Positions 2,284-18,900 are shown, counted from the stretch's first letter. The stretch: DNA of 57,321 nucleotides from Aminivibrio sp. (GCF_016756745.1 NZ_JAESIH010000065.1:1-57321), one strand, 5' to 3'. Made by a program: numbers and translations. The notes: generated by a model not told the origin, from the letters alone.

Positions 2284-2327
2284 ACTGAAGCGGCGGACCT
2301 GTACAAACCGGTCCGCCGCTTCAGTTT
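2282..2327. terminator. Bidirectional intrinsic terminator between convergent genes
   Basis: A perfect 18-bp stem (AAACTGAAGCGGCGGACC at 2282-2299 and its complement at 2310-2327) with a 10-nt loop. It overlaps the stop codons of the regulator (ends 2283) and of the convergent chemoreceptor (ends 2326). The AAA/TTT edges allow it to work on either strand. Confidence 0.8.
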
Positions 2328-4482
2328 ACTCGGTCGGGACGAGCCCCGCAGCTTCCCCTTCCGGCCCCTTTTCCGGCTCCCCTTCTTTCGACAGGATGAA
2401 CCGGGACAGGAGCTTCCGCATGCGCTCGGCCCTGTCCGCCATGACCGACGCTTCCCTGGCCACCCCCTCCGACGCCGATGCCGTCTCCGCCGAGGCTCCC
2501 CGGATGGCATCCACCCTCTGGACTACGTCGATGGTGGCATTGGAGAGCTGGTCGATAGCCCCGGCCATTTCCTCGCTTGCGGAAGCCTGGGACCTTGAAA
2601 GCCCTGCGATGTGGGCGATTGCTTCCTCGATCCCGGCGATTTCGCCAAGCACGCCGGACAGCCTGCCCTGGGCGTCCGCCGCTTCGGCCACGGTGGACTG
2701 CATCACCCTGCCGGTCTCTTCGGTCACATCCATGGATTCCCGGGCATTTCCGTGGAGGGTGGTGATGAGGGCCGCCACTTCCCGGGCCGCCTTGCTGGAG
2801 TCTTCGGCGAGCTTCCGCACCTCGTCGGCCACCACGGCGAATCCGCGGCCCGCTTCCCCGGCCCGGGCTGCCTCTATGGCGGCGTTCAGCGCCAGGAGGT
2901 TCGTCTGGTCGGCGATGGAGGTGATTACCGTGACAAAACCGGAGATTTCCTCTACGGAATCTGCGAGGGCCCGGATCTTCTCCATGTTCGTTCCGGACTT
3001 CCCCCCGACGGCGCGCACTTCCCGGATGACTTCCTCCACTCTTTCAACCGCTTCCTTCGCCATGGCCGCCGTCTGGTTCGCCGCAGCCGCGCAGTCGGAC
3101 GAAGCCTTGGCCGCCGCCTGGGCGCCCGCAGCCATTTCCTCCACACCGGCATTCGACTCCTCGAGGGCGGCGGAGTTGCTCTCGGAGATGGAGGCCACCT
3201 GCTCGAGGGAACCCCTCACTTCCTCCACCGAGGCGTTGGTCTCCTGTGAAAGGGCTGCGAGGGTTTCCGCTCCCCTGGCCACCTCTTCTGCCGCAGCCAC
3301 GATCTCCCTCACGGCTTCAGCCTGGCTCGTCGTCATCCTGGCCAGCGCGTCGGCCAGCGCGCCTATCTCGTCAGCCGAATCATACTGAAAATCATCCCTC
3401 GCCACGGTCAGGTCGCCGTTCCCCGCCCGCTCGGCCAGGCTCACGGCCCTGCCGAGAGGACGGGTGATCATGCGGGTGATGATCACCGCCACCACCATTC
3501 CGACAAGAACGGCGATAAAAACGGAAAGGAGGAGCATGTTCGAGACGCTCCGGGCCTGGTCGGTCACCACTCCCGATATTTCAAGCGTTCTGTCGACGCT
3601 GAACTTCATCACGTCTCCCGCCGCCGCAAGGACAGCTTCCCCAGCGGCGGTGCGTTCTTGGCCCAGGTTCTCGAGGTTTGCCCAGGCCATTGAAAAGTCG
3701 TCGAGGGCCTGCTCGTACTCTTCCGCGTCTTTCGTCGCTTTTTCGAGGTTCCTGATCAGTTTTTCCTCAAAGGCGGTCTTCCTGACTTCGGACAGAATGT
3801 CGCGAACGTCCTTGAGTTCCTTTTTCGCCTGGCCGATCATCTCCGTTTTTTTGTTCGCTATGGCAGTAAGGGTCACGTATTCCGCCCTGTGGACGGCCTC
3901 CACCAGCGTGTCGAGAAGGGCAATGTTCTCAAGCCTGGCGGGCGCGTTGCCCCGGGAGACGGGGTCGTTCAGATCTTTTTCCATGGCGTCCTTTTCATCA
4001 TACAGCAGGTCGTAGGCAATCTTTCGCATGGATTCTCCCGACTCGGCTGCCTTCCTTCTCTGGGCGGCCATAGAGGCGATCATCTTCTGAGATTCCTCAA
4101 GCAGTCTCCGGTATTCGGCAACCTGCTCGCCGGATTTCTTCACGCCTTCGGCAAGACGTTCAAGGCCGGGATGGGCTGAGGCATGCTCCCAGGCTTTCTT
4201 CAGAATCCCGTCAAGGGCCTCGAAATCCCCGAGGGCTGCCTGGAGGTCCCGATAGCTGTCCGCCAGGACGTAGGTGCGGATGTGGAGCATGAGGCTCTGA
4301 ACAATGTTCTCAATTTCATTGGAAAGTTCGATTCCGGGGACGTACCGCTGTTCGAGAGTGCCCACCTCGGATATCACGTTGTCCATATTGCGCCAGGCAA
4401 ACCACCCGGCCGCGGAAAAAATGACGAGCACAGCTGCGAATCCGGCAGTGAGCTTTGTTCCTATTTTCATGTTCTTCAGCAA
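2326..4482 (-). CDS. Methyl-accepting chemotaxis protein
   Basis: A membrane chemoreceptor of about 718 residues. The start is set at TTG 4482 because GAGGTGAG lies 4 nt upstream; ATG 4470 (MKIGTK...) is the alternative. Much longer readings upstream run through a repeat element and are spurious. Order of parts: an N-terminal transmembrane helix (about residues 12-32), a four-helix-bundle-like periplasmic sensor, a second transmembrane helix (about 314-338), HAMP, then a cytoplasmic methyl-accepting domain with the conserved hairpin tip ([19 protein letters not shown] near 520-545). It would signal through CheA/CheW to the flagellar motor; no che genes are adjacent, although a CheY-like regulator lies at 33.8 kb. 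Ligand not predictable. Confidence 0.9.
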
Positions 4483-4649
4483 ACGTCTCACCTCGAAGAA
4501 GAAGGATGGCGGAAGGACCCTTTTCCCCCGCGCCGGGGGCGCCCCGGGGCTTTCCGGAATGACAAAGACTATATCATGAATCACTCTTGTCCAAAATAGG
4601 AATTTGAGAAGAGTCACCGACCACCGCCATGGACAAGCAAGACGGAGGA

Positions 4650-5110
4650 GATCACGAAAAAGCGCCCAGGTGCCGGGCCCGACCGGGACGAACGGGCCGT
4701 GATCCGCGTCGCGCTCGACGTCAGCGCACAGAAAGAGCTCGAAGAGGAGATTCTCCTTAAACGAGACCCTAAATCCGCAGGCAGAGGGAGTGTCGCCGGG
4801 CACAGCGCCCGGGGGAGAGAAACCGACACGGATGTCGGTTTCACAAGCAGGCAACCGGCGAACGCAGGGAGCCGTGTTGATCGCTTGGGCAGTTGTCAAG
4901 GACGACAATCTGCACCCCCCGCCCAAGCGTTCCCCGGTGACACTCCCTCTGCCTGAAAAACCTGCGGATTTAGGGAGACACAACCCTATCGACGGGATCT
5001 CGAACAGGACATATTTCAACAGGCCTTCCTCTTCTCCCTCGTAGAGGCACAGAGAACGGGAGCGACGCCGGCCTTTCCGCAGGCAAGGCCGACGGGGAGG
5101 CGACTGCTGC
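4650..5110 (+). pseudogene. Decayed PAS-GGDEF (diguanylate cyclase-like) gene split by a repeat element
   Basis: Left of the repeat element the plus strand reads [16 protein letters not shown], typical of the end of a PAS/PAC domain. Just right of the element it reads [11 protein letters not shown], typical of the first helix of a GGDEF domain (family form: LTGLxNRxxF), and then [16 protein letters not shown] in a second frame. Removing the element and one 5-bp direct repeat joins the two halves almost in register, with about one nucleotide of frameshift. No intact GGDEF signature remains, so the gene is dead. Family assignment rests on short motifs. Confidence 0.5.
4768..4974 (+). repeat. 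CCTAAATCC-TIR element, copy A (207 bp) with 5-bp target duplication
   Basis: Terminal inverted repeats CCTAAATCCGCAGG and CCTGCGGATTTAGG bound a palindrome-rich, non-coding interior. The flanks are identical 5-mers, GAGAC at 4763-4767 and GAGAC at 4975-4979. Internal modules are GAAACCGACA...TGTCGGTTTC (hairpin), a GCAGTTGTC...GACAATCTGC hairpin, and subterminal GGCAGAGGGAGTGTC...GACACTCCCTCTGCC arms. It sits inside a PAS-GGDEF gene remnant. Confidence 0.9.
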
Positions 5111-5170
5111 AGATTCCAGGGAAAAGCCCGACAGGCAGTCTCTCCCCGGCGACTGCAAGAGAAAATCATA

Positions 5171-5197
5171 CGAGGCCCCCAAAAGAAGGGGGCCTCG
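5171..5197. terminator. Terminator hairpin downstream of the minus-strand sugar-acid operon
   Basis: A perfect 10-bp stem (CGAGGCCCCC / GGGGGCCTCG) with a 7-nt loop, 23 bp past the glycerate kinase stop codon on the minus strand. On that strand a short T-containing run follows (TATGATTTT). Confidence 0.65.
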
Positions 5198-5219
5198 TTC
5201 CGTCTTTCGCAGTGAGCGG

Positions 5220-6485
5220 CTATCTGCAGAGCACAATGGTGAGGTCGTTCACGTTGGTTCCGGTCGGCCCCGTTTTGACAAGGCCGCCGCAGGCGTCGAG
5301 CGCATGGTAGGAGTCGTTGTCGGCGAGCAGCGCCTCCGCGTCGAGCCCAAGGTCGGCAAGTCTACCGATCGTCCCGCCGTCCACAACGCCTCCCGCCGCG
5401 TCCGTCGGTCCGTCGGTGCCGTCGGAACCGACGGAGATCACAACCGTATCCGCAAGCCCCTTGATGCCGAACGCCGCGGCCAGGGCCATCTCCTGGTTCC
5501 GTCCGCCCTTTCCCTTCCCTTTGAGCCGGACGATCGTCTCCCCGCCGAGGAGCAGGGCGCACGGCGGCGACGCCGGATTCCCGGACAACCGGATCTCCTT
5601 CGCCATGGCGGCGATGAAGGCCCCCGCCTCGCGTGCCTCGCAGTTCAGCATCGTCGTCAGCAGGAGCGGCGTATACCCGAGGGCGGCGGCCTCGCGCTCC
5701 GCAGCTTTACAGAGCGCCGTCACGCTCCCGGTGATGACCGTTGTGACATTTGTAAGCGATTTCGGGGTCTCCTTCTCCAAAGCCTCTTGAAGCACCGTGC
5801 TCAGCGATAGCCCGTACTTTTCGACGATCCTCGACGCATCGGCGCTCGTCGAACCGTCAGGATACGCCGGTCCGGAGGCGATGCTGTCGAGCCTGTCGCC
5901 AAGGACGTCCGAGAGTACCACCGAAAAGACGTGCGCCGGAGCGACGAACTGGGCGAAACGCCCTCCTTTCACCGAAGAAAGCCGTTTCCGTATCGTATTG
6001 ATCTCGACGATGTCCGCGCCGCATGCAAGCAGCTGGTCGGTCACTCCGACCAGATCATCGAGGGTTATCCCCTCCCTCGGCTTCTCGAAGAGGGCCGAAC
6101 CCCCACCGGAGACGAGGAAAAGCACCGTATCCTCTGCTGAGAGCCCGCTGACCCTTTCGAGCGCACGGGCTGTGCCCTTAATCGTGTTCTCGTCCGGAAA
6201 CGGGTGTCCCGCCTCAAAAATCTCGATACCCTTTATCGGGCCGTTGCTGTGCCCGTACTTCGTCACGACGACGCCTCCGTCCAGCCGGTCTCCCAGTGTG
6301 TCAGCGGCGGCCTTCGCCATCCGCCACGCCGCTTTGCCGATGGCCGTGAGCACGATCCTCCCTCCGGACCTCGCACGGGCTGAAAAAGCCTCACCGCGCA
6401 GCGCCGCCTCCACAGCGTTTTCCGGGAGCACGGCCTCTATGGCCTTCTGTGCAATTTTCAAGGCATCCTGACGAACATCCGTCAT
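5220..6485 (-). CDS. Glycerate 2-kinase (MOFRL family)
   Basis: A 421-residue protein, the usual length for type II glycerate kinases (GckA/TtuD). It has the N-terminal DUF4147 domain with a [10 protein letters not shown] stretch (around residue 127) and the C-terminal MOFRL domain with [15 protein letters not shown] and [16 protein letters not shown]. The reaction is D-glycerate + ATP to 2-phosphoglycerate, feeding lower glycolysis. ATG 6485 is preceded by GGAGGAGGAG. It is the last gene of a six-gene minus-strand run that starts with a LarA homologue, followed by a terminator hairpin. Here it likely salvages glycerate released from a longer sugar acid or from a hydroxyacid. Confidence 0.92.
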
Positions 6486-6504
6486 TCATTCTCCTCCTCC
6501 GTTT

Positions 6505-7725
6505 TTATTTCGCGTCCGTCAGTACGGAGAAACACTCCGCCATCGTCCGTTCACCGCCGAACGCGCCGGCCTTTGTAACCACGGGAAGGCCGTGGTATTC
6601 TCCTCCCCTGAGGCGGACGAGCGGAATTCCAGGCTCAATCTCCTTCACAAGGTCGGTCCCCCCGGCTCCCAGCGCCCAGACGATCCAGATGGCGACTTCC
6701 CCTCCGGTGATAAACATCCCGGAGACGCGAGCAGACTTCAGGACCGACGGAACAACAGCGGCGAGACTCCGGCAGATTGTTTCGGACGCATTGGCGTTCC
6801 GCCCCTCCTCGATCTGCTCTTCGTCCAGCGATGACGCCAGAAGGACGCTCCTGCCGCTCCGAAGCAATCCCGAGACGGTATGGGAGAGGCGCCGCTCCTC
6901 GGAGGCGACGTCGTGCAGCAGCGCACGGATATTCACCAGAACAGGAGCGACGTCCTTCTCCTGCAGAAGCGTCCGTGCCTGGAGGGCGCTCCTCGGGCTC
7001 ATGCTCCCGACCACGAAAAACGCCGGACTGCTTCGGCTCACCAGGGCCTCGGCCATCCCTGCCGACCCCACCCAGAGGATGTCCTCGGGCGGCAGCGCGG
7101 CGCACATGCCATTCACAATCAGCTCAAGATCGCCGTCCGTCTCGACGTCGAAGGAGTACGAGCCGGCGTTGCCTGCAGCCCTCAGAATCTCCGGAATCTC
7201 CCCTGCCCGGATTTCGGCGAGCGAGACGTTCCGGACCTCGAGCGAACCGCCGCCGCGCAGCGTTTCCTGCAGTGACGAGGTAGTCACCGGCTTCCGCGGA
7301 TCCTTCCCCATCTCGGTATCGGCCACGGGAATTCCGTCGAGGAGCAGCAGACCTTCCCGCACGGTGCGTTTATTTCTGGGGTAGGCCGGGGTGAACGCTG
7401 TCACGGAAAAGCCGAGCGTCTCCCGCAAGACGGCTGTTTCGGCGGCTATGTTGCCTCGCAGCGTCGAGTCGACCTTCTTGTAGATCACTCTCTTCCCTCG
7501 CAGAGGCAGCAGGTATTCCGCCACCGTCTTCAAACAGGCGACCGCCTCCTGAGCGGGAATGTTCCGCGACTCGGTATCCACGACGACGACTCTCTCGCCC
7601 TCAATCGTGGAGAGCGCCGAAGGATCCAGGATCACCGAAGCGTCGTACCCCGCCTTCAGGAACTGAATTCCAGTGTCGTTCGAACCGGTGAAGTCATCGG
7701 CGACGACGATATACCGTGCATTCAT
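6505..7725 (-). CDS. Four-carbon acid sugar kinase family protein (DUF1537)
   Basis: A 406-residue protein with the N-terminal signature YIVVADDFTGSNDTGIQF and a C-terminal nucleotide-binding half (residues about 240-400, including MFITGGEVA). Start ATG 7725 follows GGGGGGAG; a longer reading to 7845 is not supported. Characterised relatives (OtnK, DtnK, LtnK) phosphorylate D-erythronate, D-/L-threonate or 2-oxotetronates with ATP. None of the usual partners (PdxA2 dehydrogenase, OtnC aldolase, OtnI isomerase) is adjacent; instead it sits 19 bp upstream of glycerate kinase and downstream of a KdgT-type permease. Substrate therefore open. Confidence 0.85.
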   Translation of the reverse strand: MNARYIVVADDFTGSNDTGIQFLKAGYDASVILDPSALSTIEGERVVVVDTESRNIPAQEAVACLKTVAEYLLPLRGKRVIYKKVDSTLRGNIAAETAVLRETLGFSVTAFTPAYPRNKRTVREGLLLLDGIPVADTEMGKDPRKPVTTSSLQETLRGGGSLEVRNVSLAEIRAGEIPEILRAAGNAGSYSFDVETDGDLELIVNGMCAALPPEDILWVGSAGMAEALVSRSSPAFFVVGSMSPRSALQARTLLQEKDVAPVLVNIRALLHDVASEERRLSHTVSGLLRSGRSVLLASSLDEEQIEEGRNANASETICRSLAAVVPSVLKSARVSGMFITGGEVAIWIVWALGAGGTDLVKEIEPGIPLVRLRGGEYHGLPVVTKAGAFGGERTMAECFSVLTDAK

Positions 7726-7892
7726 ATGTCTCCCCCCGTTTCTTTCCTTGCGGTTGTACGACATGCCGTCGGCGGTGCGGACTGCGGCCGGCATGATTTC
7801 GTCGATCTCCTCGGCGGCGAAGAGACCACTCTCTCTCCGCCGCACGGGTTGAGCCCGGCAACCGCGACGCAGGGCGGACCGGTTCGCTGAAA

Positions 7893-8882
7893 TCAGTTGC
7901 CTTCTTCTTTAGCGACGTTGTTGTGCTGCTTGCAGATCCTGCTGAGGAAGTCGACCAGCAGCGGACAGAGGATCGCGGTGATGACAATCGACGCACCGAC
8001 CTGCACCGTCGCCGCAGCCGCGTACGGGGCCCATGTCGGATCGACGGCCGCTATCGCCGCAGGCGTTCCGGCGGCGTTGCCTGCCGTTGTGCCGATACTC
8101 GCGCCGACCGCATCGCTCCGCTTCTCTCTCGACGGGATGAGGTACTTATAGGCAAAGAAGCCGCCTATTCCCGTGACGAGCAGGGTCATAAGGCCGAGCG
8201 CGATGCCGGGGATTCCGGCCTTCGCGATATCCATCAGGTTGAGCCCCGCTCCGAGCGGGAAAGAGAAGAAGGGGATGGAGAGCATGACACCCGGGGCGAG
8301 GAATTCCCGCATGTCCTCGTCGAGATTGCCAAGGATCATACCGATGACGATCGGGACGACAACCGCCACCATCGCGATGATGGGTATGTTGGCCAACCCT
8401 GTCATCCCCATGGCCACCATGGTGAAGAAGGGACCGTCGTTCGTGGAGATGATGGCCACGGCGCCGATGTCGGAGGCGTCACCGTACTTCTGGGCGAGCG
8501 CGGTGTAGAGGCCACCGTTCGAGTTCGCCATGGCTGCGATGAGGGCGAGGGGGGTAAGACCGAAAAGAGAAGCCTCCGGCCCCATGAGCTTCCCCACGAC
8601 AAGCCCTATCGAAATGCCAAGAAGGATCTTGACGGTGTTCAGCACGAACCCCTTCCAGAGAGCGACCCCGGCCGTCTTGATCGTGATCTGCGCGCCGCTG
8701 CAGAAGAGGAGCACTGCGATGAGAGGGAGCGCTCCTTGTTTAAAGAGCGCGGTGGTAAAACTGCCGATCATGAGCGACTTCGGGGCAAAAGTGTTCACAA
8801 TTGCGCCGAGAAGCAGGAAGACCACCATGAGTCCGCCGGGCACCTTCTGTATCGTCTTGAGAATCGGAACTTTACCGCCCAT
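7893..8882 (-). CDS. 2-keto-3-deoxygluconate permease family transporter (KdgT-like)
   Basis: A 329-residue, very hydrophobic protein of about ten membrane segments, matching the KdgT family in length and pattern (for example KVPGGLMVVFLLLGA near the N-terminus, and AAMANSNGGLYTAL, IISTNDGPFFTMVA in the middle). ATG 8882 is chosen because AAGGAAG lies 9 nt upstream; a GTG at 8891 would overlap that site. Family members are cation:sugar-acid symporters in the cytoplasmic membrane. Position between the dehydratase genes and the kinase suggests it imports the acid the operon degrades. Confidence 0.88.
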   Translation of the reverse strand: MGGKVPILKTIQKVPGGLMVVFLLLGAIVNTFAPKSLMIGSFTTALFKQGALPLIAVLLFCSGAQITIKTAGVALWKGFVLNTVKILLGISIGLVVGKLMGPEASLFGLTPLALIAAMANSNGGLYTALAQKYGDASDIGAVAIISTNDGPFFTMVAMGMTGLANIPIIAMVAVVVPIVIGMILGNLDEDMREFLAPGVMLSIPFFSFPLGAGLNLMDIAKAGIPGIALGLMTLLVTGIGGFFAYKYLIPSREKRSDAVGASIGTTAGNAAGTPAAIAAVDPTWAPYAAAATVQVGASIVITAILCPLLVDFLSRICKQHNNVAKEEGN

Positions 8883-8927
8883 AGTATGCACCTTCCTTTT
8901 AAAAAGTCATTTGGGATAGGAGCCTCT

Positions 8928-10085
8928 TCAAAAAGTCGACGTCAGTTTGTAGATACCGAACTCCATGTGTTTCAACGCTTCCGCTTTGGTGAGTTTTCCA
9001 TTGCAGGTCTGCAGGATCTCCGCGAAGACGCGCTCCCCCACCTCCGGTATGGATTCGACGCCGTCGATGATCGTCCCCGCGTTGATGTCGATATTCTCCT
9101 CCATCATGACGTAGGTCTTGGGATTGCCCGTGATCTTGATCACCGGGGCAAGGGGGAAGCCGGTCGGCGAGCCGCGCCCCGTAGTGAAAATCACTATCTG
9201 GGAGCCTCCTGCGACCATGCCGGTGATGGATTCGATATCCTGTCCCGGCGTGTCCATGACATAGAGCCCCTTGCCCGGAGGTCGTACGCCATACTCCAGC
9301 ACACCTTCGAGCGGGCTGGAACCCCCCTTGTAGATGCATCCGAGCGACTTCTCCTCGATGGTGGTCAGCCCTCCCCGGATGTTGCCCGGCGTGGGCTGGC
9401 TTCCCCGCATGTCGACGCCCATAGCGTTCGCCTTCGCCTCACAGGCGCGGACGATCTCCAAGAGCTTGTCCGCCACCTCCTTCGAGACGGCTCTGCGGGC
9501 AAGGATATGCTCCGCGCCGATGAGCTCCGTAGTCTCCGAGAGGATGGACGTTCCTCCCAAGCCTATCACCTTGTCCGACACATAGCCGTGTACCGGGTTC
9601 GCCGCGAGTCCCGACGTCGTGTCCGAACCGCCGCACTCCAGCGCGAGCACCAGCTCCGAGACGTCCGCCTCCTCGCGGGTCATCATCGCCACTTCTTGGC
9701 TGATCGAACGGGCTATGCGGAGCCCCTGCTCCTGCGCCTTGAGCGTGCCGCCGCACTCCTGAATGACCAGTGACTCCACCCGCTTGCCGGACTTTGCAAT
9801 CTCCTTGTGGAGACGCTCCGCCTGCACGCTTTCGCACCCCAGCCCGATCACCAACACCGCCGCTACGTTGGGGTTCGTCCCAAGACCGGCAAGGGTCCGG
9901 GCGGTGACTTCAAGATCCGGACCTATCTGGGCGCACCCGTGCTGGTTCGGAAGCGCTATCGCCCCTTCCACTTGTTCCGCGATTCGGGCCGCGACCGTCG
10001 AGGCGCACACTGACGCGGGGATGACCGCAATGTGGTTTCGGATTCCCACACGTCCGTCCGGACGGACATACCCCATAAACTTCAT
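8928..10085 (-). CDS. UxaA-family dehydratase large subunit (altronate/galactarate dehydratase or SuyB-like)
   Basis: A 385-residue protein matching the C-terminal catalytic part of the UxaA/GarD family (GYVRPDGRVGIRNHIAVIP at residues 5-23, NQHGCAQIGPD, ECGGSDTTSGLAANP). The metal or Fe-S-dependent enzymes of this family eliminate water from hexonates/hexarates or, in SuyAB, sulfite from sulfolactate. In this genome the SAF domain is a separate gene just upstream, with ATG 10085 overlapping its stop codon by 4 bp, the split layout also seen in SuyAB. Substrate cannot be decided between a sugar acid and sulfolactate from sequence alone. Confidence 0.85.
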   Translation of the reverse strand: MKFMGYVRPDGRVGIRNHIAVIPASVCASTVAARIAEQVEGAIALPNQHGCAQIGPDLEVTARTLAGLGTNPNVAAVLVIGLGCESVQAERLHKEIAKSGKRVESLVIQECGGTLKAQEQGLRIARSISQEVAMMTREEADVSELVLALECGGSDTTSGLAANPVHGYVSDKVIGLGGTSILSETTELIGAEHILARRAVSKEVADKLLEIVRACEAKANAMGVDMRGSQPTPGNIRGGLTTIEEKSLGCIYKGGSSPLEGVLEYGVRPPGKGLYVMDTPGQDIESITGMVAGGSQIVIFTTGRGSPTGFPLAPVIKITGNPKTYVMMEENIDINAGTIIDGVESIPEVGERVFAEILQTCNGKLTKAEALKHMEFGIYKLTSTF

Positions 10086-10408
10086 GATGTTTGGCCTCCT
10101 TTCGCGGATGTTCTCCCTGCGGCCAGATCACCCCGTCCTCGGAGACTTTCGAGATTGTGCACATGGACATGGGCGCCGGCTCTGATAGGTTCGGTAGCGC
10201 GGCCGATCACCTCGCCGTATTTCAGCACATCCCCTCCCTCAGGAATGTCAACGAGCGCAAATTTGTGTCCGAAGGGTATGGCGTCTACCAGCTTCATGGT
10301 CTTCATGCGTCCGTTGCACTCGAAAGACACATCGTTCCCGGCGCTCAGATCCGTGAGCGCCGTGGCGACACTGTCCTTGTCATGTGTCATAAGGGCTTCC
10401 CGTTTCAA
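10082..10408 (-). CDS. UxaA-family small subunit, SAF domain
   Basis: A 108-residue protein with the SAF fold seen at the N-terminus of altronate dehydratase and in SuyA (FGHKFALVDIPEGGDVLKYG, then GEVIGRA and a terminal AHVHVHNLESLRG). It partners the large subunit encoded immediately downstream with translational coupling (ATGA overlap). The TTG at 10408 follows GGGGGAGG; an internal ATG at 10390 (MTHDKD) is possible. It lies about 75 bp after the LarA homologue stop codon. Confidence 0.82.
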   Translation of the reverse strand: MKREALMTHDKDSVATALTDLSAGNDVSFECNGRMKTMKLVDAIPFGHKFALVDIPEGGDVLKYGEVIGRATEPIRAGAHVHVHNLESLRGRGDLAAGRTSAKGGQTS

Positions 10409-10483
10409 ACAACCTCCCCCCTCCCCCTGCAGGATAAAAAAACTACCTCTCGTTTTTTACTGACGCGCGTCCACCTCCTCTTC

Positions 10484-11767
10484 TCAGGAAGAGAACGCAT
10501 CAACAATCACTGCCACGCCGTCCGGGATGACGGTGACCGATGCGTCCGGTTTCCGGAGAATCCGCTCCGCCATCGACAAGGCCTCCTCCAGAGACGGGGC
10601 CCACTGCATGTTGAGATACTCCACCATCTCCTTGGGGGCTGAGGTCACCATGATCACGGTAAAATCCATCAGTACTCTGGCGAATATCTGGATCTGCCAC
10701 TGATCCGGCTCCGTCTGATTTCTCCCCCTCGCCATGATCATCTCCATGATCCCCTTCGGCGTCGGAATCGTCTCGAACGTCCGGTAGAAGGCCTCGCCGC
10801 CGTGCCCGTCGCTGCATTCGGCGGCGACGATGATAACGCCTCCCTTCCTGCACGACGCCTCGCCGGCGGTCATGCTCTTCACCGCCTGGTAGAGATTCTG
10901 GTCCAGAGGATACCCTGCGTTGCTCGTGATGACAATGTCGGCGGGAACGGCCTTGACCCTGCCGTACTTGGCGACGAACTCGCACCCCTTCTCGTGCGCC
11001 GCTTCCATGTCGCCGCTGAAGGCCGCCACGATATGCTTCTCCGCGTCGATGACCACGTTGCAGACGAACGCCAGCCCGACCTTGCGGGCAGCAAAGACCA
11101 TATCGATGTGGATGGGGTTGCCCTCGAGGATTCCGGTTCTGGCCCTTTCGTGCGCGATAAACTCCGCGCAGTGGTTCGCCATCACCGTTGTGTAGCTCGC
11201 CACGCCGGGGAGTACGCTCTTGCGGCCACCTGAGAAACCGGCGAAGAAGTGCGGCTCAATGAACCCCTCCGCGACAAGCAGGTCCGCCTCGACTGCCAGT
11301 TTATTGAGTATCAAATCGCCTCCGGAAGGAAGGGTCCCTACGTGAACGAGGCTCGTATCGTCATGGCTGTCGTGGACCACAATGCGTTCGTTCTTCACGA
11401 TCTCGGGACCGTACTTCTTCAGGAGCTCCTCCGGGGTGGTAGCCCGGTGGCCTCCGGTAGAGACCAGGATAGTGATTTGTGCATCGGGGTTTCCCGCCCG
11501 CACCTCTTCGAGAAGGAGAGGCATGATAATGGCGCTTGGGACGGGGCGCGTATGGTCGCTTGAGATGATCACGACGTTCTCTTTCCCCTTCGCGAGGTCT
11601 CGCAGACGAGGGGATCCGATCGGGTTGTCGAGGGATTTTCTGACGATTTCGCGCTCCGGCGCATCGGCTTTCAGTTCATGAAGACTCGAAACGAGAACCG
11701 CTTTCAGACGGCTGTCAGGTATATCGCAGGAAAGAGTCGATGTTCCGTAAGGAATGGATACTCTCAT
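10484..11767 (-). CDS. LarA-family nickel-pincer racemase/epimerase
   Basis: A 427-residue protein of the lactate racemase family (DUF2088). Residues that hold or serve the nickel-pincer cofactor in Lactobacillus plantarum LarA (His108, His174, Lys184, His200) correspond here to His107 (GGHR), His173 (EPH), Lys183 (GGRKS) and His199 (ANH), all present with a constant offset of one. ATG 11767 follows AAGGAGG. Characterised homologues racemise lactate, malate, phenyllactate or epimerise sugar acids at C2. As first gene of the operon with a dehydratase, permease and two kinases it likely inverts a 2-hydroxy acid into the form the dehydratase accepts. The LarBCE cofactor genes are not in this window. 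Confidence 0.9.
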   Translation of the reverse strand: MRVSIPYGTSTLSCDIPDSRLKAVLVSSLHELKADAPEREIVRKSLDNPIGSPRLRDLAKGKENVVIISSDHTRPVPSAIIMPLLLEEVRAGNPDAQITILVSTGGHRATTPEELLKKYGPEIVKNERIVVHDSHDDTSLVHVGTLPSGGDLILNKLAVEADLLVAEGFIEPHFFAGFSGGRKSVLPGVASYTTVMANHCAEFIAHERARTGILEGNPIHIDMVFAARKVGLAFVCNVVIDAEKHIVAAFSGDMEAAHEKGCEFVAKYGRVKAVPADIVITSNAGYPLDQNLYQAVKSMTAGEASCRKGGVIIVAAECSDGHGGEAFYRTFETIPTPKGIMEMIMARGRNQTEPDQWQIQIFARVLMDFTVIMVTSAPKEMVEYLNMQWAPSLEEALSMAERILRKPDASVTVIPDGVAVIVDAFSS

Positions 11768-12976: not shown

Positions 12977-15900
12977 ATGGATTTCAAATACCTTTGGAAA
13001 AAAATCTCGTCCTACATGAGTATGCGCGACTTGCACGCCTCCTGCGCGCGGGACGCAGAAGAAGATTCTTCAGTGAATGACGGCGACGGAAACCAGCTTT
13101 TCCGTCGGGCCCAGGAAACCTCCTTCGGAGCGGAGCTGTTAAGTGCCGATCAGATGGAGCGGCATGGAAAGATTCTTGCACACAGGCATCGTGTGAAATC
13201 CGGACATCCTCGGGATTCTCTTCTGCCCATGCTGGATGGAAACGAGAAGCTGCTTCGTGAAGCCTACGCCCAGCTGGCGGATGATGCAGAGGCCGGGCGC
13301 AGGATAGTGCCGGCCGGGGAATGGCTGCTTGACAACTTCCATTTGATAGAGGATCAGATCAGGACGGCCAGACGGCATTTGCCGAAGGGGTACAGCCGGG
13401 AACTGCCGTATTTGACAGGCGTTTCACCGGAGGAGTTTCCCCGTGTGTACGACATAGCCAGGGAGACGATTTCGCATTCCGACGGGCGGGTGGATCCGGA
13501 AAACCTCGTCCGTTTCGTCGAGTCCTATCTTTCGGTGACGCCCCTCAAGCTGGGGGAACTTTGGGCTATCCCCATCATGCTGCGGCTGGCACTGATAGAT
13601 AACCTCAGGCAGGTTGCGGATCGCATACTCGCCGCACGGGCGTATCACAACCTTGCGGAATACTGGGCCGATCAGATGATAGATGTTGCGTCGCAGGATC
13701 CCAAGAACCTCATTCTTCCCATCGCCGATATGGCCCGTTCGGATCCGCCGATGGACGTCTCGTTTGTCGCAGAGCTGACTCGTCGTCTCCAGGGACGGGG
13801 GGCCGCTCTCGCTCTTCCTTTGACGTGGATGGAACAGCAGTTGTCGGAGAGCGGCCTGACGATCGAGCAGTGCGTGCGCTCCGAAAATCAGCGCCAGACG
13901 GTGGACCAGGCTTCAATAAGCAACATCATCGGCAGTCTCCGCTTTTTAGGGGCGATGGACTGGCCCGAGTTCGTCGAGAAGATGAGTATCGTTGAGCATG
14001 TCCTGACCGAGGACCCCGCCGGAATTTACCGCAGGATGGATTTTACCACCCGCGACCGGTATCGCCACGTTGTGGAGCGGATCGCTAAGAACAGCCCGTT
14101 TTCCGAGATTGACGTCGCACGCACTGCGATACGTCTTGCCCGCGAAGGAGCGGCCGAAAGAGGTGTCGGTGACAAAACGGCGCACGTGGGATTCTATTTG
14201 ATCGACGAAGGAACGGCACGTCTTGAACGGGAGTCGGGGGTCCGGTTTTCGCCTGCCTGCGGAGCAGCGGGACTCTGCCGCCGCTATCCCCTGACGATCT
14301 ATCTCGGGAGCATCCTGTTGTTGAGCGCCGCTCTTTCGGGAGGGCTCGCAGCGAAAACCTTCCTCGACGGAACGGCGACAGGGGCGGCAATTCTGCTTGG
14401 ACTGCTCTCCCTCCTCTGCGCCGGTCACCTGTCGATCGCTCTTGTAAACTTGCTGGCGACGTTGATGTCTTTGCCGCGCCTGCTGCCGCGCATGGATCTT
14501 TCCAAGGGCATCCCGGCGGAGCTGTTGACGCTGGCGGTGACCCCGACGATGCTCAGCAGTGTGTCCAACGTCGAAGACCTGGTCGCGGCAATGGAAGTCC
14601 GATTCCTGGCCAATAGGGATGATCACATCCTCTTTGGCCTGCTCACCGATTTTCGGGATGCCGCGGAAGAAACGTCCCCGGAAGACGCGTTTCTCCTGGA
14701 GACGGCCCGGGAAAAAATCGAAGCGCTGAATAAAAAGTACCGGAGGTCGGAGGGAGACATTTTTTTCCTGTTTCATCGCCCCCGCCGATGGAATCCCCAG
14801 GAAGGGGTATGGATGGGCTATGAGCGAAAAAGGGGAAAGCTTGCCGCGCTGAACGCCTTTCTCCGCGGCGGGGGCGAGGAGGCTTTCTCCCTCGTCGTGG
14901 GTGAGACGGCGGTACTTTCCGGGGTGAAGTATGTGATCACTCTCGACACCGATACCCAGCTCCCAAGAGATTCTGCCCGGCAGTTTGTCAGCGCCATGGC
15001 GCATCCGCTCAATCAGCCCAGGTACGACGAAGAGCGGAGGCGCGTAACAAGCGGATACGGTATTCTGCAGCCGCGCGTGGCGGCGAGCATTATCGGCACG
15101 AACCGGTCGAGGTACGCTCGACTGTGGGCAAGCGAACTCGGCATCGATCCGTATACGAGGGCCGTCTCGGATGTGTACCAGGATCTGTTCGGCGAAGGCT
15201 CGTTCATCGGCAAGGGAATTTACGATGTTGACGCGTTCGAGCAGGCTTTACGGGGGCGCTTCCCCGAAAACCGTATTCTCAGCCACGATCTGCTGGAGGG
15301 GTGCTACGCCAGGGCCGGCCTTTTGAGCGATGTGCAGCTTTACGAGGAGTACCCTTCCCGCTACGAAGCGGATGTGAGCCGGCGTCATCGATGGATTCGC
15401 GGGGATTGGCAGATCGCGCAGTGGATTATGCCCTATGTTCCGGAAGCGGACGGAAGGCTGCGGAAGAATCCGCTCTCCATGCTCTCTCGCTGGAAAATCT
15501 TCGACAATCTCCGCCGCAGCCTGATGGCCCCGGCCCTTATGCTCCTGTTGGCGGCAGGCTGGTTTCTTACTCCCTCGCCGCTCTTCTGGACTATGACGGC
15601 GGCGGGCGTCATCCTGGTCCCTTCCTTGATCTCCTCCGCCCTGAACCTCTTTTCAAAGCCGGACGATGTTACACCCCGGCAGCACTTTGCGGCAGCTCTG
15701 GATTTGACGGCGAGGGGCTTCGCCCGGGATGCGTTCACGTTCATCTGTCTGCCTTACGAGGCATTCTTCAGCGTGGATGCGATCATGCGGACGCTTATCC
15801 GGATGGCGGTCACGAAAAGGCCCATGCTCGAATGGAATCCATCGGGAGATCCGGGGCGTGCCGGACGCAAGGATCTCATAGAGTCCTATCGGACCATGTG

Positions 15901-18900
15901 GATTGCGCCGGTCATGGCCGCAGTCGTGTTCTTCGCGGCCGTTGCGGCCGGAGGGAGGGCGCTGTTCATCGCAGCCGGTCCCGTACTCACGCTCTGGTGC
16001 GCTTCGCCCGCAGTCGCCTGGTGGACAAGTCGCCCGCTGACTCGACGCCGTACGCTTCCGACAGAGGAACAGAGAGGATTTCTGCGGAGAATCGCCAGGA
16101 AAACATGGTCATTTTTCGAGACGTTTGTCGGCCGGGAGGACAACTGGCTGCCTCCCGACAACTATCAGGAGATCCCCGTCGAGGTAATCGCGCATCGCAC
16201 GTCGCCCACCAACATGGGAATCGCCCTGCTGGCCAATCTTTCCGCCTTTGATTTCGGTTATATTTCTGCCGGGAGGCTGCTTGAACGGACGGCGCGGACT
16301 CTTCATACCATGGAGGGCCTTGAACGCTACCGCGGACACTTCTACAACTGGTACGATACGCGCGACCTGAAACCGTTAACGCCTCTCTACGTTTCAACGG
16401 TGGACAGCGGTAACCTCGCAGGGCACCTGTTGACGTTACAGCGGGGAATGCTGGAGCTTCCCGACCAAAAAATTATCGACCCCCGTTTTTTCGATGGGTT
16501 GAACGATACCCTCGAAATCATCGCCGAGGCCGCGGAGGAGCCTTCGGGAAGCGATGCCCCTCCCTGGCTCTCCCGCCTTCGCCTGGACATGGAATCCGTG
16601 CTCTCCTCACGGCCCCGGACGCCCGCAGCTTTGAGGGGTTCCCTGGAAAGGCTGGGGGAATCGGCTGCGGCCGCTCTCTCCGAGGAGAACGACAGAGACG
16701 CCGCGAACCATCGGGTGTTGTGGCTCCAGGCCTTTTCATCACAGTGCCGGGATGCGCTTGACGAGCTGACGTTTCTCCTTCCCTGGGCGATGAATTCCTC
16801 CTTCGGGAATATCCTCGAAGGCCCTTCCGATCTTGATTCTCTTCCTACACTGCGTGAACTGGCGGCCATGGAGGAAAAAATTCTCCCTTCCATCGAACTG
16901 CGGCGTGCCGCCTGCTCTTCGGAGGAGCGGGACGAACTCGATACGCTCGAAAGTCTTCTCGCGGAGTCCGGAAAACGCGCCCTCGAGAGGATGGAGGCCA
17001 TCGAAGAAATCGTTCGTCTGTGCGACGAGCTTGCCCGGATGGAATACGGTTTCCTGTACGATCAAACACGCCATTTGCTGACTATCGGCTACAATGTCGA
17101 TGAACGGCGTCCGGACGAAGGCTCCTACGATCTTCTGGCTTCGGAGGCGCGGTTCGCCACGTTTGTGGCCATTTCGCAGGGACAGCTGCCGCAGGAGAGC
17201 TGGTTTGCCCTGGGACGACGGCTCACCGTCGCTGGAGGGCTTCCGACGCTGCTCTCGTGGAGCGGTTCCATGTTCGAATACCTGATGCCGCTTCTGGTGA
17301 TGCCGACCTACGAACACACGCTGCTCGACGAAACATACAAAGCGGTCGTGGCCAGGCAGATCAAACACGGGAAGATGCGAAATGTCCCCTGGGGTATCTC
17401 GGAATCGGGGTACAATGCATTCGATGTTCACCTCAACTATCAGTACAGGGCGTTCGGCGTGCCTGGCCTGGGAATACAGCGGGGACTTGCCGAGGATCTG
17501 GTGATCGCGCCCTATGCTTCGATGCTCGCCCTCATGGTGGCCCCGGAAGAGGCGTGTTCCAATCTCGAGCGCCTTTCCGCCGAAGGCTTTGAAAGCCGGT
17601 TCGGCTTCTACGAAGCTATCGACTACACTCCGTCCCGTCTGCAGCGCAACCAGACCAGCGCGACGGTTCGCTCCTTCATGACCCATCATCAGGGAATGGG
17701 GCTGCTCTCCCTGGCAAACCTGCTTCTGGATCGTTCAATACAGAGGCGATTCGAGTCCAATCCGCTGTTTCAGGCGGCGCTCCTGCTGCTCCAGGAGCAG
17801 ATTCCCAAAGCGACGTCGTTCTATGTTGACGCAATCGAACGATTCGAGTCCCGGACTGTTTCGGGTATCCCGGAGACAACCATACGCATTTTCCGTACTC
17901 CGGATACGCCGAGCCCGGAAGTGCAGATGCTGTCGAACGGAAGGTACCACGTTGCGATAACGGCTTCTGGCGGCGGATACACCCGCTGGAAGGAATTAGC
18001 GGTGACCCGTTGGCGGGAGGACCCCACCCGGGACAACTGGGGTGCTTTCTGTTACATCCGCGACACGGAAAGCGGCGACTTCTGGTCGAATACTTATCAG
18101 CCGACGCTGAAACGCCCTGAGCAGTACGAGGCCATTTTCTCGGAGGAACGTGCGGAGTTCCGCGTCCGGAATCACGGATACGACATCTATACCGAGATCG
18201 CCGTCTCGACCGAGGACGATATCGAGCTGCGCCGCCTCCGCATCACCAACCGCGCGAGCGTGCGCCGCGAGGTCGAGGTAACCAGCTATGCGGAGGTCGT
18301 TCTCGCTCCGCCTGCGGCGGACGCCCTTCACCCCGCTTTCAGCAATCTTTTTGTACAGACCGAGATACTCCGCGGAGAGCGGGCTATTCTCTGCACCCGC
18401 CGTCCGCGGGTCGACGGAGAGGAAACCCCCTGGATGCTTCATATGATGACGGTGCGAGGGGCATCGGCTGGAGAAGCCTCCTACGAGACCGACCGGATGA
18501 AGTTCATCGGGTATGGAAACAGCGTCGAGAATCCGCAGGCGCTGGAACGGAGCGACGGCAACCGTCCGGAGCCGCTCTCGAACAGCGAGGGTTCGGTGCT
18601 TGATCCTATCGTCGCCATCCGATGCCGGATAGCCCTCGACCCGGAAGAGTCGGTCACGGTGAATATCGTCTCGGGTATCGGCGAAACCCGGAAACAATCG
18701 ATGGATATGATTGGAAAATATCAGGATAGGCGTCTCGCGGACCGCGTCTTCGATCTTGCGTGGACTCACGGACAGGTGCTGCTGCGTCAGTTAAATGTTT
18801 CGGAGGCTGAAGCCGGCCTTTATGCGCGCCTGGCGGGTTCGATCCTCTACGCCAATGCGGCCTTTCGAGCCGAACAGAGTCTCCTCGTCAAAAACCGCAG

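What the first reader, a model, noticed from the sequence alone, without database searches (positions are those of the whole stretch)
5220..11767. Uncharacterised LarA / split-UxaA / DUF1537 / glycerate kinase operon
The LarA homologue keeps all four cofactor residues at the expected positions. It heads an operon with a two-gene UxaA/SuyAB-type lyase, a KdgT permease, a tetronate-type kinase and glycerate 2-kinase. No aldolase or dehydrogenase is present, so none of the published tetronate, hexuronate or sulfolactate routes fits completely. It may degrade a 2-hydroxy acid whose C2 stereochemistry must first be inverted.
Basis: partly seen in the sequence, partly recalled or inferred. Interest (0 to 1): 0.65.

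Follow-up and report, generated by a model that had tools for sequence, protein, structure and literature searches.

The report
Glycerate and threonate-type acid catabolic operon
A six-gene bacterial operon that probably feeds on small sugar acids (glycerate and four-carbon relatives) using a nickel-cofactor racemase; its apparently missing dehydrogenase was deleted here, and an intact copy survives elsewhere in the genome at the site of an older, decayed version of the same operon.

Summary
The operon is real: larA, uxaS, uxaL, kdgT, a DUF1537 kinase and a MOFRL glycerate 2-kinase, all on the minus strand, closed by one terminator, in a Synergistota genome.

Relative G042 has pdxA (PdxA2 type) between kdgT and the kinase; here only a frameshifted scrap remains (7786-7874). 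An intact PdxA sits alone on contig C33, at the ancestral larA-pdxA-DUF1537-GK locus, where larA is a remnant and the kinases are gone. Two operon copies have decayed reciprocally, so the pathway is probably completed in trans.

LarA has Gln at the LarA1 T359 position, like the glycerate-preferring LarAH43. The nearest orthologue (95%) forms a two-gene larA-GK operon. LarA beside lactate genes carries Glu instead (7 of 7 in Synergistota, 18 of 19 in Clostridia).

Best reading: LarA racemises glycerate for the kinase; DUF1537 plus PdxA convert a D-threonate-type acid to DHAP; KdgT imports; UxaSL dehydrates a short aldonate. All activities are inferred. Altronate is disfavoured (separate uxaA-uxaB-uxaC on C58), and sulfolactate too (four Fe-site cysteines kept). 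"Invert C2, then dehydrate" survives as a rival, because larA-uxaSL operons recur in Clostridia.

The parts
10484..11767 (-). larA: Ni-pincer-nucleotide 2-hydroxyacid racemase of the lactate-racemase (LAR) group, Gln at the LarA1 T359 position; proposed glycerate racemase
   Evidence: NCBIfam NF033504 637 bits against cut-off 460; Pfam Lar_N and LarA_C; all cofactor residues kept and Q359
10082..10408 (-). uxaS: SAF-domain small subunit of a split UxaA/GarD-type lyase (start TTG 10408 or ATG 10390)
   Evidence: Pfam SAF; 4-bp overlap with uxaL
8928..10085 (-). uxaL: large subunit of the UxaA/GarD-type dehydratase with the four Fe-site cysteines C27, C51, C84, C151
   Evidence: Pfam GD_AH_second and GD_AH_C; alignment with GarD 6u7l; cysteines invariant in A2
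7893..8882 (-). kdgT-family permease, proposed importer of small aldonates
   Evidence: Pfam PF03812 390 bits; below the KdgT equivalog cut-off
7786..7874 (-). pdxA remnant: PdxA residues 200-228 with a frameshift near residue 213; both ends of the gene deleted
   Evidence: DNA alignment with the G042 operon; two tblastn segments at E about 3e-4 against the whole window
6505..7725 (-). DUF1537 four-carbon acid-sugar kinase, nearest to D-threonate kinase DtnK (below that model's cut-off)
   Evidence: Pfam SBD_N and NBD_C; NCBIfam DtnK 272 bits, OtnK 116; PDB 4xfm E 8e-39
5220..6485 (-). MOFRL-family (class II) glycerate 2-kinase, the only one found in the genome
   Evidence: Pfam DUF4147 and MOFRL; PDB 2b8n glycerate kinase E 2e-139; single genome match
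5170..5198 (-). intrinsic terminator closing the operon
   Evidence: 11-pair stem, 9 G-C pairs, T-rich tail

Best explanation
This is a catabolic operon for C3/C4 aldonates that needs no aldolase. KdgT imports the acids. LarA, with its nickel-pincer cofactor, interconverts L- and D-glycerate, and the MOFRL kinase turns D-glycerate into 2-phosphoglycerate. The DUF1537 kinase phosphorylates a tetronate of the D-threonate type, and a PdxA2-type dehydrogenase oxidises and decarboxylates it to DHAP. That dehydrogenase was once part of the operon, has been deleted from it here, and is now supplied in trans from contig C33, the ancestral locus of the same operon, where the reciprocal genes were lost. 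UxaSL dehydrates a short L-2-hydroxy aldonate (L-glycerate to pyruvate, or D-threonate to 4-hydroxy-2-oxobutyrate). Shown by sequence: gene content, the pdxA remnant, intact PdxA with a larA remnant at C33, and residue and context patterns. Inferred: every substrate. My separate estimates: LarA on glycerate 0.6; DUF1537 plus PdxA on a tetronate 0.65; PdxA acting in trans 0.6; UxaSL on a C3/C4 acid 0.5.
For: (1) G042 has larA-uxaS-uxaL-kdgT-pdxA-DUF1537-GK, 81-96% identical gene by gene; the window has a pdxA scrap at the same place. (2) G000:C33 keeps an intact PdxA, 93% identical to G025's operonic PdxA, with a deletion-fused larA remnant and no DUF1537 or GK, between the flanks of G025's larA-pdxA-DUF1537-GK operon. 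The other DUF1537 kinase in the genome has its own PdxA beside it on C58, so the window kinase and the C33 PdxA are each without another partner. (3) LarA has Q359 as in LarAH43, which is best on glycerate (PMC11770544). G043's 95%-identical LarA forms a two-gene operon with GK. Lactate-operon LarAs carry E359: 7 of 7 in Synergistota and 18 of 19 in Clostridia. (4) [PrpR-type activator]-uxaS-uxaL-kdgT-DUF1537-pdxA recurs in Bacillota, Synergistota and Sumerlaeota. (5) R. eutropha KdgT imports D-threonate, and D-threonate kinase plus 4-phospho-D-threonate dehydrogenase give DHAP; UxaA/GarD-family AraD enzymes dehydrate D-threonate (PMC10079672; family placement PMC6336799). (6) LarC is in the genome.
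Against: No activity has been measured. DUF1537, KdgT and UxaL all score below the cut-offs of named equivalogs. The Q/E pattern has few independent contrasts (two starred pairs, both agreeing, p 0.5), and G025/G026 carry E beside pdxA-DUF1537-GK. Most Clostridia Q-type LarAs have no telling neighbour. Glycerate kinase need not have a racemase: T. tenax GK keeps 30% activity on L-glycerate (PMC2063504). Genome-level presence of GK does not track Q-type LarA (GK in 129 of 188 genomes). A dehydratase and a kinase for the same tetronate would be partly redundant.
Confidence: 0.5

Rival explanations
1. LarA acts first as a C2 epimerase of the UxaSL substrate (for example D-erythronate to D-threonate), giving the L-2-hydroxy, (2S,3R) configuration that UxaA/GarD enzymes and the D-threonate kinase need.
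For: larA-uxaS-uxaL adjacency in 8 of 8 P297/C359 LarAs of Clostridia and in Synergistota G110. LAR-group enzymes epimerise 4-deoxytetronates, though weakly (PMC11770544). Characterised UxaA-family substrates share the (2S,3R) configuration.
Against: The larA-uxaSL operons of Clostridia use a different LarA subtype (P297/C359 against V297/Q359 here). LarAH43-type enzymes are about 700-1400 times weaker on 4-deoxytetronates than on glycerate. larA occurs with GK and without UxaSL, DUF1537 or PdxA in G043.
Confidence: 0.2
2. Non-phosphorylative Entner-Doudoroff-like route: UxaSL dehydrates an imported C5/C6 aldonate, an aldolase encoded elsewhere cleaves it, and LarA plus glycerate kinase handle the L- or D-glycerate made from the glyceraldehyde fragment.
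For: MOFRL kinases are the signature of branched ED pathways (PMC2063504). uxaSL pairs with GK alone in G031 and lies beside AFOR in L047.
Against: No aldolase is seen in the widespread five-gene cassette or in the larA-uxaSL-GntP-GK operons examined. The operon's kinase and dehydrogenase point to C4 acids.
Confidence: 0.15
3. Sulfolactate operon: UxaSL is SuyAB and LarA is a sulfolactate racemase.
For: Two-gene architecture as in SuyAB; sulfolactate is a C3 analogue of glycerate.
Against: UxaL keeps all four cysteines that PMC6336799 reports as conserved in UxaA/GarD dehydratases except sulfo-lyase. No sulfonate or sulfite genes were seen in the operon or its relatives, and the kinases would be unexplained.
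Confidence: 0.04
4. Plain altronate dehydratase linked by chance to unrelated genes.
For: Family resemblance to UxaA/GarD.
Against: A conventional single-chain UxaA lies beside a UxaB-type mannitol dehydrogenase, with UxaC nearby, on C58. The uxaSL-kdgT-DUF1537-pdxA set is conserved across phyla.
Confidence: 0.04

Closest known systems
LAR-group lactate racemases of the LarA superfamily, in particular LarAH43 (Q359; PMC11770544)
   Same: All cofactor and catalytic residues, V297, W358 and Gln at position 359; above the NF033504 cut-off
   Different: Operon with glycerate kinase, DUF1537 kinase and UxaSL instead of lactate dehydrogenase and permease
D-threonate catabolism of Ralstonia eutropha H16 (KdgT importer, D-threonate kinase, 4-phospho-D-threonate dehydrogenase; PMC10079672)
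   Same: KdgT-family permease and DUF1537 kinase; PdxA2-type dehydrogenase in the relatives' operon and in trans here
   Different: Adds UxaSL, LarA and glycerate kinase; pdxA decayed in the window; the kinase is below the DtnK cut-off
UxaA/GarD dehydratase superfamily (D-altronate, galactarate, D-arabinonate, D-idonate dehydratases; PMC6336799)
   Same: Same domains and the four Fe-site cysteines
   Different: Split into two genes; 54-95% identical relatives sit mostly with kdgT-DUF1537-pdxA or, in Bacillales, with FAH hydrolase and aldehyde dehydrogenase
Class II (MOFRL) glycerate 2-kinases
   Same: Full-length match to the 2b8n glycerate kinase
   Different: Paired with a LarA racemase, which I found described nowhere in the papers searched

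Membership tests
LAR group of the LarA superfamily | Conserved NPN-binding and catalytic residues, two catalytic His | tested here: met
   D72 R75 H108 H174 K184 H200 Y294 Q295 K298 W358 all present
LAR group of the LarA superfamily | NCBIfam NF033504 cut-off | tested here: met
   637 bits against 460
LAR group of the LarA superfamily | NPN biosynthesis genes in the genome | tested here: met
   LarC at G000:C84; LarB and LarE not searched
LAR group of the LarA superfamily | Lactate metabolic context | tested here: not met
   No lactate genes beside it; those occur with E359 LarAs
LAR group of the LarA superfamily | Racemase activity and substrate | not testable with these tools
   Needs NPN-loaded purified enzyme
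D-threonate kinase (DtnK) / DUF1537 | DUF1537 domains | tested here: met
   SBD_N and NBD_C above cut-offs
D-threonate kinase (DtnK) / DUF1537 | DtnK equivalog cut-off | tested here: not met
   272 bits against 450; so filed only as a DUF1537 kinase nearest DtnK
DtnK-PdxA2-KdgT pathway | Intact PdxA2-type dehydrogenase in the operon | tested here: not met
   Only a remnant at 7786-7874; intact PdxA at G000:C33
KDG permease (KdgT) | KdgT equivalog cut-off | tested here: not met
   227.7 bits against 453.8; Pfam family cut-off met
UxaA/GarD dehydratase superfamily | Domains and four conserved Fe-site cysteines | tested here: met
   the criterion
Sulfolactate sulfo-lyase SuyAB | Two-gene structure without the four conserved cysteines | tested here: not met
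   Split, but the cysteines are kept
Altronate dehydratase UxaA | Link with uxaB and uxaC | tested here: not met
   uxaB and uxaC lie at C58 with another, single-chain UxaA
Class II (MOFRL) glycerate 2-kinase | DUF4147 and MOFRL domains, full-length match to a glycerate kinase | tested here: met
   activity not testable

The most novel reading that the evidence does not exclude
LarA plus UxaSL plus glycerate kinase is an aldolase-free glycerate module in which UxaSL is a natural glycerate (or D-threonate) dehydratase, an activity not known from any UxaA/GarD enzyme in its own pathway, and a C2 racemase decides which of two fates (2-phosphoglycerate or 2-oxoacid) each enantiomer meets. The module has fused with the widespread uxaSL-kdgT-DUF1537-pdxA cassette.
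Probability: 0.25. Interest if true: 0.65.

Novelty: new variant of a known kind. Interest (0 to 1): 0.5.

Why it matters
It gives a concrete substrate hypothesis for a Q359-type LarA, a group whose physiological role the LarA authors leave open. It also links LarA to glycerate kinase, DUF1537/PdxA2 and a split UxaA lyase by gene context repeated in two phyla. The cross-phylum uxaSL-kdgT-DUF1537-pdxA cassette makes the role of split UxaA enzymes directly testable. The reciprocal decay of two operon copies shows how a pathway can look incomplete when only one locus is read.

Tried and rejected
The DUF1537 PNAS paper is not held, so its pathways are cited through PMC10079672. Genome-level co-occurrence of LarA and GK is uninformative, because GK is in 129 of 188 genomes. 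The tree-corrected Q/E test has too few independent pairs. Cassette UxaLs are not one clade: 9 changes, at least 5 forced, so neighbourhood rather than sequence carries the argument. A literature search for the whole gene set found nothing. Plasmid hits show uxaSL-kdgT without the kinase in E. albertii and a fused UxaA-kdgT in Paraburkholderia, so uxaSL and kdgT are a pair on their own. No structure prediction was run, since the active-site residues could be mapped onto solved LarA structures at high similarity.

Full report
Anatomy. The window is contig C65 of a 2.94-Mb genome that belongs to Synergistota: its nearest named relatives are Synergistaceae/Synergistales MAGs. The reported region is a co-directional minus-strand run. 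larA is at 11767-10484, uxaS at 10408-10082, uxaL at 10085-8928, kdgT at 8882-7893, a DUF1537 kinase at 7725-6505, and a MOFRL glycerate 2-kinase at 6485-5220. The only strong terminator is behind the last gene.

The missing dehydrogenase. In relative G042 the same operon, 81-96% identical gene by gene, has one more gene between kdgT and the kinase. It is a 328-aa PdxA that scores above the TIGR00557 cut-off, and its closest solved structures include 2hi1 and 6e85, the D-threonate 4-phosphate dehydrogenase. In the window that place is a 167-nt gap. It aligns to PdxA residues 200-228 in two pieces joined by a frameshift, with both ends of the gene deleted. So the gene was once there and decayed.

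Where it went. The genome keeps an intact PdxA alone on C33, 93% identical to the operonic PdxA of same-genus G025. In G025 and G026 that locus is larA-pdxA-DUF1537-GK between an HD/GGDEF gene pair and a GGDEF gene followed by a FadR-TRAP cluster. In the window's genome the flanks are the same. The larA there is reduced to fragments (residues 66-92 and 406-422), however, and the kinases are gone. The window operon itself is 86-96% identical to members of another genus (uxaS 81%), against 56-75% for its same-genus counterpart and 45-68% for most flanking genes between the two genera. The simplest history is that the window operon was acquired from outside and the two copies then decayed reciprocally. 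The window kinase and the C33 PdxA are each other's only unpaired partner, since the genome's other DUF1537 kinase, on C58, has its own PdxA. Action in trans is an inference.

What LarA does. All cofactor and catalytic residues are present. At the position that PMC11770544 links with specificity (T359 of LarA1) it has Gln, as in LarAH43, whose best substrate there is glycerate. In Synergistota, LarA beside the lactate dehydrogenase-Etf genes, mostly with a lactate permease too, has Glu in 7 of 7 cases. LarA beside KdgT, DUF1537, PdxA or GK mostly has Gln, the exceptions being G025/G026 (Glu) and the uxaSL-linked G110 (Ser). In 391 Clostridia genomes Glu goes with lactate genes in 18 of 27 and Gln in 1 of 19 (Fisher p 4e-5, not corrected for kinship). 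A tree-based test had only two independent pairs, both agreeing. The closest LarA orthologue (95%) is in a two-gene operon with glycerate kinase (G043). The window's GK is the only one in its genome. A glycerate racemase feeding D-glycerate 2-kinase is therefore the best reading, though such kinases tolerate some L-glycerate.

What UxaSL does. UxaL belongs to a clade (99% SH-aLRT) with copies in Thermosediminibacter, Clostridium and Acetomicrobium. There it stands in the cassette uxaS-uxaL-kdgT-DUF1537-pdxA, often behind a PrpR-type sigma-54 activator; the cassette also occurs in other Bacillota and in Sumerlaeota. Ralstonia KdgT imports D-threonate, and two UxaA/GarD-family AraD enzymes dehydrate D-threonate. 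In Clostridia a second LarA subtype (P297/C359) lies next to uxaSL in 8 of 8 loci, three of them with glycerate kinase and one also with a tartronate-semialdehyde-reductase-like gene. These contexts agree on C3/C4 acids but do not choose between L-glycerate and D-threonate. The four cysteines kept by dehydratases and reported as absent in sulfo-lyase are present. A separate uxaA-uxaB-uxaC set makes altronate unlikely.

Verdict. The operon is a new combination of known enzyme families, with a likely glycerate and tetronate role and a dehydrogenase supplied in trans. No substrate has been shown.

Noticed in passing
G000:C58, L079 8481-10699: A second DUF1537-PdxA pair with a TRAP transporter, 26% and 40% identical to the window kinase and to G042's operonic PdxA.
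   Followed up: partly
L312, L313, L314, L315, L316, L317, L319, L320 (Clostridia): LarA subtype P297/C359 always next to uxaS-uxaL, sometimes with GntP permease and glycerate kinase; LarAH42 of PMC11770544 has C at this position and only weak activities, so its true substrate may be the UxaSL substrate.
   Followed up: partly
window 2326-4803: A chemoreceptor (MCP) lies directly downstream of the operon; in G031 (L042 3336-5390) an MCP with a Cache domain also lies near uxaSL-GK.
   Followed up: no
G000:C92 and C93 (L059, L060): Two short contigs nearly identical in gene content, each with a LarA paralogue 36% identical to the window LarA; a duplication or a strain mixture.
   Followed up: no
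L229 5657-10324 (E. albertii plasmid): uxaS-uxaL-kdgT with a sigma-54 activator but no annotated kinase or pdxA, on a plasmid.
   Followed up: partly
L078 117-1670: A nitrilase-family gene 92.6% identical to that of G042/G043, although most neighbours are 45-68% identical between these genera.
   Followed up: no
window 12977-21817: A single 2946-aa open reading frame upstream of the operon on the other strand; not characterised here.
   Followed up: no
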